From the NCBI GenBank assembly GCA_002841335.1, contig PHEY01000011.1, positions 1 to 57,717 on the forward strand: a stretch of DNA of 57,717 nucleotides. Direction: 5' to 3'. Below the pieces are notes generated by a model. That model ran no database searches. It was not told the DNA's origin and saw nothing but the letters and a program-made list of their open reading frames with translations. The DNA is from Actinobacteria bacterium HGW-Actinobacteria-2. Its GTDB lineage: Bacteria; Actinomycetota; Actinomycetes; Propionibacteriales; Propionibacteriaceae. Every line of letters starts with the position of its first letter. The first letter of the stretch is position 1. The position numbers and the translations under genes are program-made. This document shows positions 31,536 through 39,087 of this stretch, piece after piece.

Positions 31536-31623
31536 GGAGGATTCGCCTAGAGGCCTATGGCGCTCGCTTGGAAAGCGGGTTGGGTTCACGCCCTCACGAG
31601 TTCGAATCTCGTATCCTCCGCCA
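31536..31623 (+). tRNA. tRNA-Ser (anticodon GGA), CCA encoded
   Basis: Acceptor stem GGAGGAT/ATCCTCC, anticodon stem CTCGC/GCGGG around the loop TTGGAAA (anticodon GGA), a long variable arm, a T-loop TTCGAAT, discriminator G and a genomic CCA. It marks the left edge of the accessory block. Confidence 0.97.
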
Positions 31624-31632
31624 AGGGTGAAG

Positions 31633-31670
31633 CCGGCTTTGGCCCAGACTGAATCGTCTGTCAGAGCCGG
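31633..31670 (+). terminator. Terminator after tRNA-Ser
   Basis: CCGGCT/AGCCGG outer stem with inner CAGAC/GTCTG helix, followed by TTCTGTTGT. It starts 10 bases after the tRNA end. Confidence 0.65.
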
Positions 31671-31782
31671 TTCTGTTGTCGGCGGAGTGCTTCAGGGGCT
31701 CTGAGGTTGCCAATCGCGAGTCCCCGGTGCCGGAACTGGCTGCTCGGGATCTGCCCAGCGTCCCGCGGCAGCGCCATTGAGG

Positions 31783-32364
31783 CTAGAGCGAGCGCGCCAC
31801 CGGTCTCGTCGGGCGCTTCTCTCCCAACTGTGCCCGGGGTGATACGGCGGCGGGCAGAGGCGTGCGCCCCGCCGCTGGTGCCGGAGTTGGGACTGCGACA
31901 AGCACATGAGCGAGTCGCTCTTCGAAGCTGCCCCCAGGGGTCCGACCGTGGGCGTCTGCCACAAACTGATGCCAGCGGGACGGATGCCTCGGCTCGCCGC
32001 CGACCATCCAGATCGTTTCATGGCCGGCAGCGGCAGCTGCGGTATAGAGCCATTGCGCGCGGCGAGCCCGCTCGCACCGGAATGCCCCCGAGGCACCCGC
32101 TACGCCCCATCCAGCCAGAACTCCATCCGCGAGGCTGAGTTGCGTCGCAATCTGTGATTGGTTGGCGGGCCAAGGCGAATGGCTATCAAGGTGGTTGAGC
32201 TCGATAACATCCATAGTTCGATCGGCGAATAGGTTCGCGATCGTAAGGTCGCCAAAGCCGAGAACCGCTGCCGCGCGCTGTACTGCTCCGAGCGTGCGTG
32301 CGCCCGAGGTGGAGCGGGGCGGATTGAGCAGCACCGCGAGGAGCCGAAGCTGGTTGACGGCCAT
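31783..32364 (-). CDS. DUF1643-like protein, last gene of the ParB-methyltransferase operon
   Basis: 193 residues. The order of motifs matches DUF1643: LLAVLLNPPRST near the start, GFGDLTIANLFADR, VLAGWGVAGASG, then IWMVGGEPRHPSRW. Relatives end near the RHP motif; here about 55 more residues, rich in Pro/Ala/Arg, follow. The start ATG lies 9 bases after the methyltransferase stop and no ribosome site is visible, so translation is probably coupled. DUF1643 proteins are small, often phage- or island-borne, with no settled function. The 159 bp between its stop and the tRNA-Ser end hold only the tRNA terminator. Confidence 0.7.
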   Translation of the reverse strand: MAVNQLRLLAVLLNPPRSTSGARTLGAVQRAAAVLGFGDLTIANLFADRTMDVIELNHLDSHSPWPANQSQIATQLSLADGVLAGWGVAGASGAFRCERARRAQWLYTAAAAAGHETIWMVGGEPRHPSRWHQFVADAHGRTPGGSFEERLAHVLVAVPTPAPAAGRTPLPAAVSPRAQLGEKRPTRPVARSL

Positions 32365-32373
32365 CGAGATGCG

Positions 32374-33720
32374 TCAGTTGGTGCGCGAGAGTCGGTCATG
32401 TGCGGCGTCCGGGCCGCCGTCCTTGTAGGGCTCTTCCCAGTCGACTTCTGCGTCCAGATCCCTCACTCTCCCGCCCTTGCGGGCAAGCACTAGCACGCAA
32501 TCCTTGTCCGTCGCTTGGCCTTTGGTGTCGCCCCAGATGCGGCTCACTTTCTTGTCGACTGGGAGCTGGTCCTCTATCAGATCTATGAGCTGCAGTTCGG
32601 TGGCGTCGCCAAGGTCTGCCCAGACCTGCTCGGCTAGTGGCACCCGTTCCTTCCCAGGCTCGACGACGTCGCCGATCACAATGGCCGCGACACCGTTCGG
32701 TGAGAGTGACCGCTCAACGCCAGCGAGCAGTCTCCGTGTGAACTGCATGTATGCGTCGTAGCCATGCCGATGGTCAAGGACGCCATCGAGCTTCCTACGA
32801 CCTTCGCCTCGATCCCGACCGACCTCGTCGACTCCAAGCAGCCACAGGCGTATCCAGTTGGACGTGCCGTAGTTGACGACCCGGAGATATGGCGGCGACG
32901 TAACCAGGAGGTCGATGGAGCCGGGCTCTACTGGGCCAGCGGAGAGAAGGACCGAAGCGTCTTCAAAGTAGGTGACCCCGGCTGCACCATCCACCGCATC
33001 GAGGTACAGCCGGGCAAGCTTGTCGCGGAGCCGCTCGAAGACATCTTGCTCGAGTTTGCCGAGACTGTTTTCGCGGATGAACTTCCGCACGTAGTTCGGT
33101 GACATGCTGAACGTGTTCGGCATTGAAATGCTCAGGTATTGAGAGGTGCCATCCTGCCGATGTGCGCCGTGCATGATGCCTGATAGTGCGCCCGCAATCA
33201 TGCGCTTCTCTTGCGACCACTCCACCATGGGTTCGCTAAGAAGGTAGTCGCGGATGTAATTGAGCTGCTTGAGCGTGCTCGGGTGGTAGAGCATCTGGAT
33301 GTCGGGCGAGACATCAGGGTCGTCGCTGGGTGTTGCATAGCCCTTCTCCAAATCGGCGACTGCTTTCATGACGTCGAGCCAGGTTGGCGGGTCCGCTTTG
33401 GCACCCGATAGGACGTAGGCAAGTGGGTTCAGGTCATTACTGATCGTCCGGCGACCCTCGACACGGGCCTGAAGCGGCACCGTTCCGCGCCCACTGAAAG
33501 GGTCGATGACCAGATCTCCCGGCACGGAGTAGCGTTGAATGAAGTAGTGCGCGAGCTTCGCGGGGAACATCCCGTGGTAGGAGCACATCGTGTGCATCGA
33601 GTGCCCCCAGCGCGTGCTTGCGGCGTGCCAAAGAGGTCCGTTGCTCGTCGTTCCTCCATCTGTCGAGTCCGGCTCGGGTGCGTCGAAGAACGCGCCTTCT
33701 GGGTCAAAATCGGTAGTCAT
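32374..33720 (-). CDS. DNA methyltransferase (N4-cytosine/N6-adenine type)
   Basis: 448 residues. The S-adenosylmethionine site is DPFSGRGT (residues 73-80), preceded by HTMCSYHGMFPAKLAHYFI. The catalytic motif is TSPPY (274-278), followed by LRVVNYGTSNWIRLWLLG. The order is motif I first and motif IV about 200 residues later, so any target-recognition segment probably lies between them. The TSPPY motif indicates amino-group methylation, N4-cytosine or N6-adenine. The start overlaps the preceding ParB-like stop (ATGA). No restriction nuclease is recognisable in the neighbourhood. Confidence 0.9.
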   Translation of the reverse strand: MTTDFDPEGAFFDAPEPDSTDGGTTSNGPLWHAASTRWGHSMHTMCSYHGMFPAKLAHYFIQRYSVPGDLVIDPFSGRGTVPLQARVEGRRTISNDLNPLAYVLSGAKADPPTWLDVMKAVADLEKGYATPSDDPDVSPDIQMLYHPSTLKQLNYIRDYLLSEPMVEWSQEKRMIAGALSGIMHGAHRQDGTSQYLSISMPNTFSMSPNYVRKFIRENSLGKLEQDVFERLRDKLARLYLDAVDGAAGVTYFEDASVLLSAGPVEPGSIDLLVTSPPYLRVVNYGTSNWIRLWLLGVDEVGRDRGEGRRKLDGVLDHRHGYDAYMQFTRRLLAGVERSLSPNGVAAIVIGDVVEPGKERVPLAEQVWADLGDATELQLIDLIEDQLPVDKKVSRIWGDTKGQATDKDCVLVLARKGGRVRDLDAEVDWEEPYKDGGPDAAHDRLSRTN

Positions 33721-34589
33721 TTGAGGTATGCCCTAAACGCCTCAGCGGCCATCTTGAGGACCGGGTCAGACGTGTCGCGGGACACTCGGCTAAGGTTCTG
33801 CACGGCGGCCCTCGTGCTGCGCGCCTTCGCCGGTTCGTTGCGGATGGCCCGGCGAGTGCCAAGGGTCTTCTTGACGTCCCGGAGCTCGGAGTCTTCTCTG
33901 TAGTACTGGTCATCCAGCGCACCGGTTATTGACTCAACGTCTGCTGTTAGGTATCGCGCCCCGTGCCCTTGACGCGCCGACAGGATCATGCGCTCGGCCC
34001 AGGGCTCTGCGGCCTCACCGTCGCCGGCAAGCTGCTGGAGGACGAGCCGCAGCCCTTGAGCTGTAAGGCGTTGCCATGCAAACGGGTTGGAGGCGGGGAA
34101 CACGCCGAGATCCATCAGTTCGACAACCTTCACAAACAGCCCGTCCCGCTGCATGAGCCGCCACAACCCGGTGTAGTTACGAAGCGTGGCCGGAGACACG
34201 CCGATGTAGCGGGCGATATCGATCTTCTTGACCTTCTCGGTCTGGTGTAAATGCTCGACGAGGGTGGCCAGTTGGCTTGGTAAGAGGTCTTGGTAGATGT
34301 CTGTCTGGTAGCGGATCTCGTAGCGTCGCGCATAGTCGGTCAGATAGGCAGGCACGACTGCGAAAACCGTTGGGTCATCCTCACGAATCGCGGCAATGGC
34401 GCGAACCCGCATGGTGCCATCTACGACCAGGTACTTCCCCGATGGCATCTGAGCCACCTTGATCGGCTCTGCCAGCCCGATCTCTTCGATCGAGGAACGG
34501 AGCCGTTCCTCGAACTGCTTCGCGCTACCGGATCTGCGGAGCTCATCGCTAATGACGAGTTCGCTCGGGGCAACGTCAATAAGCATCAT
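33717..34589 (-). CDS. ParB/Srx-domain DNA-binding protein, copy 2
   Basis: 290 residues. The N-terminal ParB/Srx domain shows LRSSIEEIGLAEPIKV, GKYLVVDGTMRVRAIAAI (in place of the usual GHRR-type motif) and a helix-turn-helix VKKIDIARYIGVSPATLRNYTGLWRLM at about residues 117-145. The second half is helical with no known domain. ParB/Srx domains bind and hydrolyse CTP in chromosome-segregation proteins; the altered motif leaves that open here. It is coupled by 4-base overlaps to the ParB-like gene before it and the methyltransferase after it. Confidence 0.8.
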   Translation of the reverse strand: MMLIDVAPSELVISDELRRSGSAKQFEERLRSSIEEIGLAEPIKVAQMPSGKYLVVDGTMRVRAIAAIREDDPTVFAVVPAYLTDYARRYEIRYQTDIYQDLLPSQLATLVEHLHQTEKVKKIDIARYIGVSPATLRNYTGLWRLMQRDGLFVKVVELMDLGVFPASNPFAWQRLTAQGLRLVLQQLAGDGEAAEPWAERMILSARQGHGARYLTADVESITGALDDQYYREDSELRDVKKTLGTRRAIRNEPAKARSTRAAVQNLSRVSRDTSDPVLKMAAEAFRAYLK

Positions 34590-35455
34590 CCGACGGTCAC
34601 CACCTGGGGGCGCTGGGGCTCAAGCGCAAACGACGATGGTAACCTCTCGGCGAGCTGGCTGAGTCGGTCACCCACGCTGCCCTTGCCGATCCCGGAGAGT
34701 TCTTGGCACGCCCATGCGAGGAGGATTAGCCGACCCGCACGATGCTCGTTGCCAAGATCGGCAAGCTTCTGCCACCCGAGGGCGCGGAAGAGCTCATCGA
34801 TCTCCCGGGCTCGCAAGGCGTACTTCGAAATCTCCGCGACGATGTCTGCGCGCTCACTACTGTCGACGTGACGAGAAATTACGGCATGCAAGGCGAGATT
34901 CATGTTACCGCTCTTGAGCGCTGCAACCTCTCGCTTGCTCGCCCCGTTCAGTTGGCCCTGGAGCCTACGAACCGTGACCGGACTAACACCAAAGCGGCGC
35001 GCGACGTCCGCAGTCTCCTCACCCTGCTGCCGTGCGCGCGAGATGAGGAGCGCGCGATCAACAGGTCGCATTCGTAGGCGAGCGACGTTCTCGACCAGGA
35101 ATTGCTGAACCTTCTCGTCCTCCGCGAAATCCTCGCCGACCACAATCGCCGGGATCGTCTGGATTCCGAGCATCTCGCATGCGAGTGTCCGCCCCTGCCC
35201 CTTGATGAGGAGGTATTCGCCAGAAGCGTCTGAGGTACGGCGCACGGTGATCGGTGTCAGTACACCGAACTGCTCAATGGACCTGCGAAGTTCGCGGTGG
35301 CCATTACGGTCGCGCTTCCTTCCGAGCCCGTCTTCGGCTCGGATCTTCGAAACGAGGATGTCTTTCACCTGTAGGGCCTTACGCTTCTCGTCTCGCCCAC
35401 GGATCTGCTTCGCGCCGGTCGACGTGTCTGCGGGCTGTTCGGACACCTGCGTCAC
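34586..35455 (-). CDS. ParB/Srx-domain DNA-binding protein, copy 1
   Basis: 289 residues from the GTG at 35455, which has AAGGTGG 8 bases upstream. The frame is open much further (to 35953), but that part is Arg/Pro-rich and unlike the family. The ParB/Srx domain has HRELRRSIEQFGVLTPITV, EYLLIKGQGRTLACEML and VVGEDFAEDEKVQQFLVEN. The helix-turn-helix is GEETADVARRFGVSPVTVRRLQG. This organisation is that of RepB/ParB-like partition or phage proteins. It is about the same length as the next gene, and the two probably form a pair. First gene of a four-gene operon. Confidence 0.8.
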   Translation of the reverse strand: MTQVSEQPADTSTGAKQIRGRDEKRKALQVKDILVSKIRAEDGLGRKRDRNGHRELRRSIEQFGVLTPITVRRTSDASGEYLLIKGQGRTLACEMLGIQTIPAIVVGEDFAEDEKVQQFLVENVARLRMRPVDRALLISRARQQGEETADVARRFGVSPVTVRRLQGQLNGASKREVAALKSGNMNLALHAVISRHVDSSERADIVAEISKYALRAREIDELFRALGWQKLADLGNEHRAGRLILLAWACQELSGIGKGSVGDRLSQLAERLPSSFALEPQRPQVVTVG

Positions 35456-35981
35456 GGGGTTCACCACCTTCTCAAAACTACATGCCTGTGATTCTGCCAC
35501 TAGGACCCGACACAGTTGATCGGGCGCTACCGCATGGCGCGAGCCGAGGGCAACCACGCCATCGTAGGGCTTGCTGGCGCAGAACCTTGGCTCCAGTTGG
35601 ACACCGATGGGGAACCGCGCTCGCCGTCGGCTCCCGGGAGATCCACGCCGGGGTCCGCCGTCGCTGGGACATCTCGACCACACGACGCGGCTCGCGTGAC
35701 TGGTGGGTCGCATCTGGAGGATCCTGGTCTTCGTGGCCGCGTGGTCTTGGAGGCGCAACCCGCACGCCACCGGAGACTCGTAGATCAGCACGGACCTGGG
35801 CTTGGCTCCGGGTCGGCACGCCGGGCAGGTGTGAGGCTTCTTCAGGAGTCTTCGGGCCATAGCGCCGGGATGGAGCAGGATAGCGAGCCCAGGAGGCTGC
35901 CGATGTCCCTCGTGACGTGCTCTACGAGTGCGGGCCCCCGGGCCAGAGGCCATGCGGCTGGTGTCGATGTTGTCTCACGCC
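35456..35981. other. 526-bp stretch without a confident gene, upstream of the ParB operon
   Basis: The frame of the ParB gene continues open through here on the minus strand and includes MARRLLKKPHTCPACRPGAK (ATG at 35860) with Cys pairs, but no ribosome site or family match is visible. It should contain the promoter of the ParB-methyltransferase operon. I found no tRNA or strong hairpin. Confidence 0.4.
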
Positions 35982-36113
35982 TTACCCCGAGTGGGCAGGT
36001 AACCCGCCGTCGTCGACGAGTGCGAGGAGGCTCTCGGATTTCTGGGATGTGCAAGCCTCCTGCAGCACGACCGAGATCGTGACGTCACCTTCGAAGATGA
36101 TTTCGGTGTTCAC
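35982..36113 (-). CDS. 43-residue micro-ORF translationally coupled to the sigma factor
   Basis: The GTG at 36113 overlaps the sigma-factor stop by 4 bases (GTGA), and GGAAGGGG lies about 15 bases upstream. The product reads VNTEIIFEGDVTISVVLQEA... and continues CTSQKSESLLALVDDGGLPAHSG to a TAA at 35982. It is acidic, with one Cys, and has no membrane segment. The tight coupling suggests it regulates or assists the sigma factor, for example as a small anti-sigma peptide, but that is inference. No family is recognised. Confidence 0.6.
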   Translation of the reverse strand: MNTEIIFEGDVTISVVLQEACTSQKSESLLALVDDGGLPAHSG

Positions 36114-36676
36114 GCCGCCCGCGCCCCTTCCATGACCGTGCGGAGGGCGCGGTGGATGGTCGCGAAGCGCTGCGTCACGGCGGGTTTGCTGATGTTCAGT
36201 TGGACAGCGATTTCTGTGAAGCTCAAGTCGGCCAGGTAGTGCGCCCTCGCCACGTCCTGTTGCTCCGATGTCATGACCTTCATGAGGTCTACGAGCTCGA
36301 AGGTGGAGTTAGTGGCAGCGTCCCTCGGCTGATCCGGCCAGGCATAGGTCATCGGGTCAACTGCACTCTCCGGAGCCTGCATGGCCATGAGCGTGCGGAG
36401 CGCCGCCCCTTTCATGTATCGCTTGGCGTAGCTGGGAAACCCTGGCGTGCCCGCCTTGTGGGTCCGCACCGCCCGGACAAGTCCAAGGCGAGCGCCCTGG
36501 GCTGCGTCCTGCCGCAGACTCGAATCGCTAGTGAGGTGACGGGCTATGGCCAGGGCCGTGTCCTCGAAGCGCTCGAGGATGATGGCCATCGCGGCCGAAT
36601 CATCGGTTACGGACGCCTGCGCGGAAGCGATCAGGTCGTTCAATGACGGATTGACTCCAGAAACAGAAATGCCCAT
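36110..36676 (-). CDS. Small sigma-70-family factor (regions 2 and 4)
   Basis: 188 residues from the ATG at 36676 (GAAAGGG 8 bases upstream). Region 2 is visible in RQDAAQGARLGLVRAVRTHKAGTPGFPSYAKRYMKGAALR (residues about 70-110, read in pieces), and the region 4 helix-turn-helix in LTSE..., LSFTEIAVQLNISKPAVTQRFATIHRALR. Region 3 is absent or reduced, as in ECF-like factors. It could switch on the accessory block. Its own promoter should lie in the 188 bp between it and the GHKL ATPase, downstream of a terminator hairpin. Confidence 0.8.
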   Translation of the reverse strand: MGISVSGVNPSLNDLIASAQASVTDDSAAMAIILERFEDTALAIARHLTSDSSLRQDAAQGARLGLVRAVRTHKAGTPGFPSYAKRYMKGAALRTLMAMQAPESAVDPMTYAWPDQPRDAATNSTFELVDLMKVMTSEQQDVARAHYLADLSFTEIAVQLNISKPAVTQRFATIHRALRTVMEGARAA

Positions 36677-36816
36677 CGTGTTTGCCCTTTCGGATAGAGG
36701 ATTCCTCAGGGGCACCCAAGACGGGCGTGAGTATAGATTGTCGGCTCGACGCGTCGGTTGGCCCAGAACTACCCAGGCAATGTGACGAACCCCTGATGTT
36801 CAGTTGTGTGCCTAAG

Positions 36817-36859
36817 CGTACACCCGAGGCCAGCCGCCGGGCCGGGCCCCGGGTGTACG
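36817..36859 (-). terminator. Terminator hairpin after the GHKL ATPase
   Basis: CGTACACCCG and CGGGTGTACG are perfect 10-bp arms around a GC-rich 23-base loop, 6 bases downstream of the ATPase stop. It separates the ATPase transcript from the sigma-factor gene. Confidence 0.7.
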
Positions 36860-36864
36860 ACTAG

Positions 36865-38649
36865 CTATGCGGCGTTCACGTTCTCGTCGTTGTCGTTGAC
36901 GACCTCAATCTTGCGCAGGGAGGTGAGTACGTCCTTGAGGTTGGGCGACCAGACTTGCTGACGCTCGGCCTCATAGAAGCGCCTGCGATCGGATTCGGGG
37001 TCAGCATCAACTTCCGCGTTACCCAGCGTCCACAACAGCAGCTCCAGGCTCGCCCGGAGCCGCGGTGAGGAGGTAGGGCTTCCGTACAGGTCGGTGTAGA
37101 AGGGGTGGGCGACGTTGAGGAGGAGCACGCGCTGCCCACCTCGCTGCTCGCAGCGATAGAACGCCGCGCCCGGCAGATCCTCCGTCTCGACAGCTCGAGG
37201 GTTGCCCTCCTGCTGCGCCACGAGTTCGCGCTCGATCGACTCCTCCGAGACTCCAGCGTCCTTAGCGCGGCGCCGGGCCTCGTTCTTGAGGTTCTCGTCT
37301 GCCTCCTTGATGCGGGAAGGGGTGTCCTGAGGTGGCTTGGAGGTCCTGAACTTCTCGGCATCCTCCAACGCTTCGATGGAGGCCCTCTTGCGCTCCTCGG
37401 CCTGAGCGGCAATCTTGGCGGCCTCCTTCTTATAGATCCCCTTCATGGTGGCAACGGACTCGAAGATCTTGGCCTTGTCGCTAAGGATGTCCCAGATCCG
37501 ATCCGAGGGAACGACCTGTTGCTTGGCGGTGGTCATGGCGAACTCGTCGTCCAGCTCGGCGTCGAAGTCGACCTCGATGGCCCAGAAGCGATCGGTAGTG
37601 GCATTGACCGAGAACAGGCGTCGCGGTGGCTTGACAACGTCGATCTCGCGCCCGTTGCGAAGGAAGATGATTCCGTTGTGCGCGTCTGCGACAGGCAGCC
37701 TCTCGTTCATGTCATGGCGGCTCGGTTTGTTCGTGCCCTTGGCCTCGGGCTTGCGGAAGAAGCTCGCTGGCATTCGGGAGAAGCGAACACGCAACTTTCC
37801 GACGGTCGCCTTCGTCGCCTTGTCGGTGACCTCGATGACGGCGCCCGGAAGTTCCTCGGCCCGGTCGTCATCCAGTTCGTAGTAGCGGAATCCGGGGGTG
37901 AGGAAGAGCGGGTCGCACGGTTCCACCCTGACGCCATCGACGGTCATGGGAACGGCCACTAGGTAGTTGCGGTAGATCACGCCTAGATCACTCACGAGCC
38001 TGTTCCGGAGCTCCTCGCGCCGCGCTCTGTCGACTCGCGTGGTATCGAGCTTGTCCCACACAACGACCGTGCCGCTCGTGAGCGGCCACCGCTTCTGCTT
38101 CTTGAGGTGGTCAATCACGAAAGCCGGGGGATCCTGGAGAATCTCCTTGGGAGTGTTGATTCGGTGCGTCTCGGTCCACTTTCCTTGGCTGATTTCCTCG
38201 ACATCTAGGTAGGACTTCGCCCACGGTTCGCCGTCCACCTTCGAGTAGACCTCGACGCGGAGGCACTGACTGACGGAAGCGGACGGTAGCCCATACCCGT
38301 ACTTGCCGAAGCCCTGACGATCGCTGTATCGAGTGCCAGCACCCCAGACGAGGGACGCGCGGACCATCGGCGCGATCATGCCCCAACCGTTGTCGATAAC
38401 GGCGATCTTCGCGGGTTTGAGGCTCCCCTGGGTGAAGCCGAACACCACGTCAATCCACGTCGCGCCGGCCTGAATGGAGTTGTCGATGAGTTCCGCCATG
38501 GCGAACGACGTACTCTTGTAGCCGATGTCGCGCATGCCTCGAACGAAGGCGTCGCCGACGATGAGATCCCAGCCGGCGTCATTCAAACGATCGACGAGAT
38601 TCTTCTGAGCGGAGAGAGTGTCGCTCGCTCCTGTTTCTGTGGTAGCCAT
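36865..38649 (-). CDS. MORC/MutL-like GHKL ATPase
   Basis: 594 residues from an ATG with AGGAGGG 8 bases upstream. The N-terminal Bergerat fold has the N-box AELIDNSIQAGA (Glu53, Asn57), the G1 box VIDNGWGM (Asp86, Gly88, Gly90) and the G2 box GFGKYGYGLPSAS (about 113-125). This order is closest to MORC/MutL-type ATPases. A transducer-like domain follows, then a Lys/Glu-rich coiled-coil region (about 410-480) and a C-terminal helical domain. Members of this ATPase group are known from prokaryotic restriction-modification-like loci. It lies upstream of the sigma and ParB-methyltransferase operon on the same strand. It is likely a clamp-like DNA-associated ATPase. Confidence 0.8.
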   Translation of the reverse strand: MATTETGASDTLSAQKNLVDRLNDAGWDLIVGDAFVRGMRDIGYKSTSFAMAELIDNSIQAGATWIDVVFGFTQGSLKPAKIAVIDNGWGMIAPMVRASLVWGAGTRYSDRQGFGKYGYGLPSASVSQCLRVEVYSKVDGEPWAKSYLDVEEISQGKWTETHRINTPKEILQDPPAFVIDHLKKQKRWPLTSGTVVVWDKLDTTRVDRARREELRNRLVSDLGVIYRNYLVAVPMTVDGVRVEPCDPLFLTPGFRYYELDDDRAEELPGAVIEVTDKATKATVGKLRVRFSRMPASFFRKPEAKGTNKPSRHDMNERLPVADAHNGIIFLRNGREIDVVKPPRRLFSVNATTDRFWAIEVDFDAELDDEFAMTTAKQQVVPSDRIWDILSDKAKIFESVATMKGIYKKEAAKIAAQAEERKRASIEALEDAEKFRTSKPPQDTPSRIKEADENLKNEARRRAKDAGVSEESIERELVAQQEGNPRAVETEDLPGAAFYRCEQRGGQRVLLLNVAHPFYTDLYGSPTSSPRLRASLELLLWTLGNAEVDADPESDRRRFYEAERQQVWSPNLKDVLTSLRKIEVVNDNDENVNAA

Positions 38650-39087
38650 TGTTGCTGCCCTCCTGGTTTCGGTGGGGCGGCCCCGGTTGAGCCGCCTCAG
38701 GTTGGATGTCTAGAGAAGACACCCCACGGCGTCGCTGTTAAGGGCCACTCCGAAAGCGTTCGAGCCCCGACGCCTTGACAAGGTGAGCTGTGACAGGCAG
38801 GGCGCGTGGTGTGTGTATCCGGGGCGACCGGGTTAGTGCTCGGAGTCGATCTCCGGGCCGCCAGCACCTCCGCATCTGCTTCGAGGGGGCGCTGTCTCGG
38901 AGCCTGCGTCGTTCGGCGCGCCACCGGCTGTGGAAACCCCAGGCACGCGCAGGTTGTAAGAACCCCACAATCCGAGGTGTGAATTCCTGGCTGGCAGAGG
39001 ATCACTTTTGGCGGGTTCGTCTAGTTGGATCGTAAGGACGCCTGTGGGACGGGTGTCTTTCGTGTGTCTACACCTCCAGGAGGACCC
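38650..39087. other. 438-bp divergent gap between the ATPase and the carboxylase
   Basis: Promoters of both genes should lie here. CCTTGACAAGG (38773-38783) is a perfect short palindrome containing TTGACA. No attachment-site copy of the tRNA-Ser 3' end is visible. No gene or RNA recognised. Confidence 0.4.

What the first reader, a model, noticed from the sequence alone, without database searches (positions are those of the whole stretch)
31783..35455. Four-gene ParB-ParB-methyltransferase-DUF1643 operon, a candidate new modification or defence system
Two ParB/Srx-domain proteins with helix-turn-helix motifs (about 290 residues each) precede a TSPPY DNA methyltransferase and a DUF1643 protein. 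The first three genes are joined by 4-base ATGA overlaps and the last by a 9-nt gap. No ParA, replication gene, nuclease or integrase is present, so plasmid partition or a classical restriction system does not explain it. I infer that the ParB proteins place the methyltransferase, or a clamp, on DNA. ParB domains with methyltransferases are known in phage and mobile DNA, but I do not know this exact set.
Basis: partly seen in the sequence, partly recalled or inferred. Interest (0 to 1): 0.78.

Follow-up and report, generated by a model that had tools for sequence, protein, structure and literature searches.

The report
Methylation defence module with swappable partners
A bacterium carries a compact gene block in which two DNA-binding ParB proteins and a DNA-marking enzyme form a unit that, in related bacteria, is paired with different sets of likely phage-fighting genes, suggesting a mix-and-match immune system.

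Summary
The four genes are real, on the minus strand, at the stated places. But the block is larger than reported. The whole insertion between tRNA-Ser and the conserved flank (31,624 to about 38,909) holds six genes: a MORC/MzaB-like GHKL ATPase, an ECF-sigma-like protein, ParB1, ParB2, a TSPPY methyltransferase and DUF1643. Starting from ParB2 alone I found 10 more loci (9 distinct), all Actinomycetes. ParB1-ParB2-methyltransferase is together in all of them, with conserved 4-base overlaps. The partner changes: of ten distinct loci (window included) four carry the MORC plus sigma pair, five a Pbe-like cassette (HKD-helicase PbeA, small gene, CxC-type ATPase PbeC, small gene), and one both. 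A tree of the trio rejects a single MORC-type group. Pbe and paraMORC proteins are known parts of modification-based defence loci, so the trio is most likely the self-marking half of such a system. DUF1643 is not core: it adjoins the trio in 3 of 10 loci, and its subfamily recurs beside BREX, Hma, Zac and other defence genes. A conserved cis-element lies upstream of ParB1. No function was tested. I rate it a new variant of a known kind.

The parts
36865..38649 (-). MORC/MzaB-like GHKL ATPase, 594 aa
   Evidence: HATPase_c_3 E 2.5e-18; NCBIfam MzaB E 5.2e-17, 61 bits against a cut-off of 850; profile matches MORC2 structures E 8.6e-7; relatives at 60-63% beside the trio in L009/L010, L012, L013 and 40% in L011
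36110..36715 (-). ECF-sigma-like protein, 201 aa
   Evidence: sigma70-ECF TIGR02937 E 1.9e-12, above cut-off; 33% relatives beside MORC in L009/L010, L012, L013; L011 has a sigma-like ORF upstream of its MORC
35478..35500 (-). conserved cis-element upstream of ParB1 (core TGGCAGAATCACA, then N4 and TGTAG)
   Evidence: 10-mer with at most 1 mismatch in 8 of 10 upstream regions; 0 of 200 shuffles reach 7; the 14-mer occurs once exactly in the own genome
34586..35455 (-). ParB1, 290 aa, ParB_N + HTH
   Evidence: profile matches Spo0J structure 1vz0 E 1.3e-15; ENVAR stretch identical in 10 of 10 rows
33717..34589 (-). ParB2, 290 aa, diverged ParB-like + HTH
32374..33720 (-). DNA methyltransferase, 448 aa, motif I before TSPPY; N4-cytosine or N6-adenine not settled
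   Evidence: TSPPY and DPFSGRGT invariant in 10 of 10 rows
31783..32364 (-). DUF1643 protein, 193 aa, accessory
   Evidence: PF07799 E 2.3e-9; subfamily neighbours
31536..31623 (+). tRNA-Ser (GGA), left boundary of the insertion
   Evidence: homology to three sister genomes stops at 31623
31624..38908 (.). the whole inserted stretch; right boundary between 38,909 and 38,948
   Evidence: blastn against sister genomes G004, G010, G006

Best explanation
ParB1-ParB2-methyltransferase is the self-marking (modification) half of a modular anti-invader system. In this genome its partner is a MORC-type GHKL ATPase with a sigma-like protein; in relatives it is a Pbe-like cassette. Steps: (1) the trio is one conserved unit with overlapping genes (shown by synteny and overlaps); (2) it is joined to two unrelated cassettes (shown by neighbourhoods and tree); (3) the methyltransferase marks host DNA (inferred from motifs); (4) the ParB pair, one copy keeping the ParB ENxxR motif and one degenerate, finds or holds DNA for the methyltransferase and/or controls the operon through the element upstream of ParB1 (inferred; clamp loading is speculation); (5) unmarked DNA is acted on by the MORC ATPase here, perhaps by trapping or compaction, or by the HKD-helicase and CxC ATPase elsewhere (inferred from the known families).
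For: Found with ParB2 only, 10 of 10 loci carry the trio. ParB2-methyltransferase overlap is 4 bases (ATGA or GTGA) in 10 of 10 distinct loci including the window, ParB1-ParB2 in 9 of 10 (not L012). Cassettes: MORC only in 4 of 10 distinct loci (window, L009/L010, L012, L013), Pbe-like only in 5 of 10 (L014-L018), both in 1 of 10 (L011). PADLOC PbeA E 5e-185 and PbeC E 1e-264, on the L007 copies (same place as L014). The concatenated-trio tree splits window (MORC) plus L015 (Pbe) from the rest at 96%; the AU test rejects MORC-only loci as one side of a split, p 7e-5. Published context: Pbe/CxC systems with methylases (PMC10853773 passages; PMC6459918 passages) and paraMORCs in restriction-modification loci (PMC2292703 passages). 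The insertion is the six genes and little else.
Against: No activity is shown for any gene. Only 10 distinct loci, all Actinomycetes, from one pattern-limited scan. The window version has no recognised nuclease, and the MORC model is poor (pTM 0.41), so a hidden effector domain is neither shown nor excluded. The window-L015 split is 86% for ParB1, 49% for ParB2 and absent for the methyltransferase alone (where window, L015 and L011 split off at 85%). Since L011 has both cassettes, loss from a doubly equipped ancestor is as possible as exchange. Neighbourhoods are finite (11.9 to 21.0 kb), so a missing cassette could lie further out. PbeB and PbeD are assigned by position and size; a profile of the PbeD-like protein found no DndE structure. 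ParB2 scores below the ParB cut-offs. MORC relatives also occur without the trio, beside DruA.
Confidence: 0.6

Rival explanations
1. The ParB pair are only transcription regulators (like controller proteins of restriction-modification systems) that bind the conserved element upstream of ParB1; the methyltransferase works alone.
For: Both ParBs have HTH regions; a conserved element, in several loci with an imperfect TCACA-N4-TGTAA inverted repeat, sits 30-88 bases upstream of the ParB1 start used, in loci of both cassette types; no second exact copy in the own genome.
Against: Two ParBs overlapping the methyltransferase gene is more than a controller needs; ParB domains joined to methyltransferases exist in a phage family (ParB1 and the window methyltransferase match different parts of phrog_498). 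Who binds the element is unknown, and in the genome scan with up to 2 mismatches the reversed control pattern had more hits (14) than the element (5).
Confidence: 0.25
2. The six genes are two independent systems that happen to sit together (MORC-sigma, and trio plus DUF1643).
For: MORC relatives occur with DruA and without a trio match in L053, L021 and L022 (L021 has a weak ParB1 match to the plasmid's RepB). DUF1643 is promiscuous.
Against: MORC-sigma beside the trio in 4 distinct loci in two orientations, and MORC in a fifth; in a sample of 293 genomes of the order the only other MORC match at E 1e-40 is G177.
Confidence: 0.2
3. Mobile-element housekeeping: a partition or stability remnant of a plasmid or prophage with an orphan protective methyltransferase.
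For: The block is an insertion at a tRNA gene with somewhat lower G+C (the window has another G+C dip near 25-27 kb).
Against: No ParB2 match in plasmid or phage records and none in the viral scan; ParB1 matches in 14 plasmid records, none covering 80% of the 455-aa query; no second copy of the tRNA end within 3 mismatches in the window; Pbe and MORC partners.
Confidence: 0.08

Closest known systems
PbeABCD / CxC ABC-ATPase-DndE systems
   Same: Six distinct relatives of the trio carry PbeA and PbeC homologues with two small genes; published work notes such systems with methylases in place of phosphorothioation (PMC6459918, PMC10853773 passages)
   Different: The window itself has no Pbe gene; I found no description of a ParB pair with the methylase in the papers searched
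paraMORC / MZA system (MzaB)
   Same: GHKL ATPase with MORC-like N-terminus in a modification locus
ParB-methyltransferase phage proteins (phrog_498)
   Same: ParB domain and DNA methyltransferase together
   Different: Separate genes, two ParBs, bacterial loci with defence cassettes
Dpd and Dnd systems with ParB-family DpdB/DndB
   Same: A ParB-family protein in a DNA-modification defence system (PMC12839542, PMC10853773 passages)
   Different: A methyltransferase rather than deazaguanine or sulfur chemistry

Membership tests
PbeABCD system | PLD/HKD-helicase PbeA and CxC ATPase PbeC in the locus | tested here: not met
   Window: no tblastn hit of either. L011 and L014-L018: homologues of both present; PADLOC scores on the L007/L014 copies only
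MZA (MzaABCDE) | MzaB above curated cut-off | tested here: not met
   61.4 bits versus 850
[not shown]
   No such family among the proteins of the block that were scanned
Classical type II restriction-modification | Methyltransferase with cognate restriction endonuclease | tested here: not met
   Methyltransferase present; no nuclease family among the scanned proteins of the block
ParABS partition | ParA beside ParB | tested here: not met
   No ParA-type family among the eight minus-strand proteins scanned between 31,783 and 39,297
ParB superfamily (ParB1) | ParB_N domain above cut-off | tested here: met
   43 bits versus 26.3
ParB superfamily (ParB2) | ParB_N domain above cut-off | tested here: inconclusive
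   17.9 bits versus 26.3; TIGR00180 27.9 versus 58.45; five phrogs match
DNA methyltransferase | N6_N4_Mtase domain, SAM and catalytic motifs | tested here: met
CTP-dependent ParB clamp | CTP binding and clamp closure | not testable with these tools
   ENxxR motif kept in ParB1; the reading of these residues is recalled

The most novel reading that the evidence does not exclude
A methylation-guided defence family in which a ParB pair acts as a nucleotide-gated DNA clamp that delivers a methyltransferase as the self-mark, and in which a bacterial MORC ATPase replaces a nuclease-helicase cassette as the effector, silencing unmarked DNA by trapping or compacting it, an ancestor-like analogue of eukaryotic MORC silencing.
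Probability: 0.25. Interest if true: 0.82.

Novelty: new variant of a known kind. Interest (0 to 1): 0.6.

Why it matters
It links a ParB pair to what looks like methylation-based immunity, shows one modification unit combined with two unrelated partner cassettes, and gives a compact six-gene system in which the role of bacterial MORC ATPases can be tested directly. It also flags a DUF1643 subfamily as a recurring defence accessory of unknown function.

Tried and rejected
DUF1643 as a glycosylase fold: I thought of a uracil-glycosylase likeness (recalled motifs), but the AlphaFold model (4 sequences, pLDDT 68.5) gave no PDB match at E 0.001, and sequence and profile searches of the PDB gave nothing below E 0.14; not supported, not excluded. 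DUF1643 in viral contigs: no relative with A6, one with A8. Repeat of the tRNA end: no second copy in the window within 3 mismatches. Nucleotide similarity of the block in plasmids: only about 100 bases of the MORC gene in two records. Window methyltransferase in plasmids: 19 records, 8 covering at least 80% at 24-36% identity; in phages 2 records at 34-35%. In the four of these 21 neighbourhoods that I opened (L019, L020, L023, L024) tblastn finds no ParB1, ParB2, MORC or Pbe match; the other 17 were not opened, and two Salmonella hits overlap a gene annotated ParA family.

RecA-NDp (PafBC) promoter: the pattern TGTCRN11TANNNT (consensus recalled, not printed in the passages I read of PMC6789036, PMC8223512 and PMC2897130) lies upstream of ParB1 in 5 of 10 loci against 11 of 1366 background stretches (a looser form 7 of 10 against 29 of 1366). 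But the background may include those same sites, the pattern was chosen after looking, the stricter TTGTC form gives 0 of 10, and the window has only a form ending CAGAAT; a lead only. MORC structure: low confidence, no fold search done.

'Not found in print' rests on searches of open-licence PMC text; of the papers listed I saw only passages, or the listing. A lookup of the earlier ABC-ATPase classification paper (identifier recalled) found it not held, so a prior figure with a ParB pair there cannot be excluded.
Full report
What is there. The four genes lie on the minus strand as described, with ATGA overlaps at 34586-34589 and 33717-33720 and a 9-nt gap before DUF1643. Transcription runs ParB1, ParB2, methyltransferase, DUF1643.

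Where it sits. A tRNA-Ser ends at 31623. Against the matching region of three genomes of the same genus, nucleotide homology stops at 31623 and resumes at 38943 (G004), 38909 (G010) and 38948 (G006). The inserted stretch is therefore the six genes and little else. The same slot holds other cargo in those genomes: about 2.3 kb in G004, 6.3 kb in G010, and 30 kb with very long ORFs in G006 (I read the G006 genes as polyketide or peptide synthases from their first residues only). No second copy of the tRNA end was found in the window and no integrase family was matched among the block proteins scanned.

Relatives. A scan of one genome for each of 84,980 species with the ParB2 alignment gave 10 loci, all Actinomycetes; L009 and L010 appear to be the same locus in two MAGs and count as one, so 9 distinct plus the window make 10. 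L014 is the same place as L007, and L016 the same as L006. The scan used two short peptide patterns, so it misses diverged copies. Other searches: ParB2 in 3 of 30 genus genomes (own, G016, and a weak match in G023 that also matches ParB1 and looks like another ParB); 2 of 293 order genomes; 1 of 396 phylum genomes, the own one; none in plasmids, phages or viral contigs.

The trio and its partners. All 10 loci carry ParB1, ParB2 and the methyltransferase in order, at 52-61%, 50-65% and 61-68% identity to the window in the alignments of 10. The ParB2-methyltransferase overlap is 4 bases in 10 of 10, the ParB1-ParB2 overlap in 9 of 10. Four distinct loci, window included, have MORC plus sigma-like; five have PbeA, a small gene of 84-100 aa, PbeC and a PbeD-like small gene; L011 has both, its MORC more diverged (40%) and with a sigma-like ORF upstream of it. 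The partner genes played no part in the search, so their recurrence is independent evidence. Orientation of the MORC pair relative to the trio differs (same in window and L013, divergent in L009 and L012). The concatenated-trio tree splits window plus L015 from the rest at 96%, and a tree with the MORC-only loci on one side is rejected (AU p 7e-5). Single-gene support for the window-L015 split is 86% (ParB1) and 49% (ParB2); the methyltransferase tree instead splits off window, L015 and L011 at 85%. So the cassettes were exchanged, or lost in turn from an ancestor with both.

What the partners suggest. In PADLOC the L007/L014 copies match PbeA (E 5e-185) and PbeC (E 1e-264). Passages of PMC6459918 describe PbeABCD as a phosphorothioate-dependent antiviral cassette and report base-modifying genes near 155 of 320 solitary PbeAC pairs. 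Passages of PMC10853773 redefine it as a CxC ABC-ATPase system that can recruit cytosine methylases, some circularly permuted cytosine-N4. Passages of PMC2292703 place MORC and paraMORC ATPases in restriction-modification loci. In order-level sampling, PbeA at E 1e-60 occurs in 5 of 293 genomes (6 places): one is the trio locus G055; L054 carries another methyltransferase with MTaX1 and DUF1643; the other four (L055-L058) each have a second ABC-ATPase match, as expected of Dnd-type loci, which I did not annotate further. MORC relatives lie beside a DruA homologue in a genome of the same family (L053) and in two Roseobacter-group plasmids (L021, L022), none with a trio there.

DUF1643. It adjoins the trio in window, L016 and L018, and lies about 8 kb from it in L014. 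With a subfamily profile, 10 of 293 order genomes have a match. Seven of ten are directly beside a gene with a PADLOC match: the window methyltransferase, BrxA in L069, L072 and L074, ZacA in L070, HmaA/HmaB in L073, PDC-S58 in L075. L054 is beside MTaX1 (Pfam) with a PbeA-like gene next (tblastn). The other two have a PbeC 3.8 kb away (L014) or a methyltransferase 1.35 kb away (L071). One gene from each of ten arbitrary places, nine of them in these genomes, gave 0 of 10. The control tested one gene per place, the DUF1643 loci up to four in PADLOC, chosen after reading their ORFs, so it is rough. DUF1643 looks like a travelling defence accessory, not part of the ParB mechanism.

Cis-element. 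In the 350 bases upstream of ParB1 the 10-mer CTGGCAGAAT occurs with at most one mismatch in 8 of 10 loci; 200 dinucleotide shuffles never exceeded 6. A model built without the locus in question ranks the site first in its locus in 8 of 10 (window, L009, L011, L012, L014-L017); in L013 the site matches the core exactly but ranks third, and in L018 it is not among the best four. In L011 the site overlaps the start codon I used, so that start is probably too early. In several loci the element continues as TCACA-N4-TGTAA, an imperfect inverted repeat. It occurs with both cassette types, so a trio protein is a natural candidate to bind it, but it could also be a promoter. In the own genome the 14-mer has one exact copy; with up to 2 mismatches it has 5 hits against 14 for the reversed control, so there is no sign of further sites. 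A RecA-NDp-like pattern is present upstream in 5 of 10, with the caveats given under Tried and rejected.

Mechanism and confidence. I hold at about 0.6 that the trio is a modification unit of a modular defence system. The motif reading of ParB1 as nucleotide-binding and of ParB2 as degenerate is inference from conserved residues and recalled knowledge. Base specificity is not settled. The effector action of MORC is inferred. Nothing here was tested by experiment.

Noticed in passing
L021 7527-21058; L022 7526-14305: Roseobacter-group plasmids carry two MORC-like ATPases (37-38% and 32-33% to the window) with a DruA homologue; L022 has an annotated sigma-70 gene nearby, L021 a very long DEAD/DEAH helicase gene further on.
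   Followed up: partly
L010 210-2495: A diverged GHKL-like protein (761 aa, HATPase_c_3 E 1.9e-4, below cut-off; no PADLOC match) follows the sigma-like gene in one MORC-type locus.
   Followed up: partly
L054 1068-2357: A DddA-like double-stranded DNA deaminase toxin domain is encoded near a Pbe-like, MTaX1, methyltransferase and DUF1643 locus.
   Followed up: no
L041-L044: The tRNA-Ser slot is a variable cargo site in the genus, with inserts of about 2.3, 6.3 and 30 kb in three genomes.
   Followed up: partly
L076 4001-4447: A DUF1643 relative (35% identity) in an IMG/VR viral contig; neighbours not annotated.
   Followed up: no
L007 16682-17572: An SRA-HNH protein lies beside the Pbe-like cassette in Actinopolymorpha; such domain pairs are known from modification-dependent nucleases.
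   Followed up: no
L006 12739-15189: A second SMC/AAA-type ATPase (816 aa, best PADLOC match mad3 E 3.9e-21) follows DUF1643 in the same-genus trio locus.
   Followed up: no
window 36812-36864: An inverted repeat (20-nt arms, 85% complementary) sits between the MORC and sigma-like genes, perhaps a terminator or regulatory hairpin.
   Followed up: no
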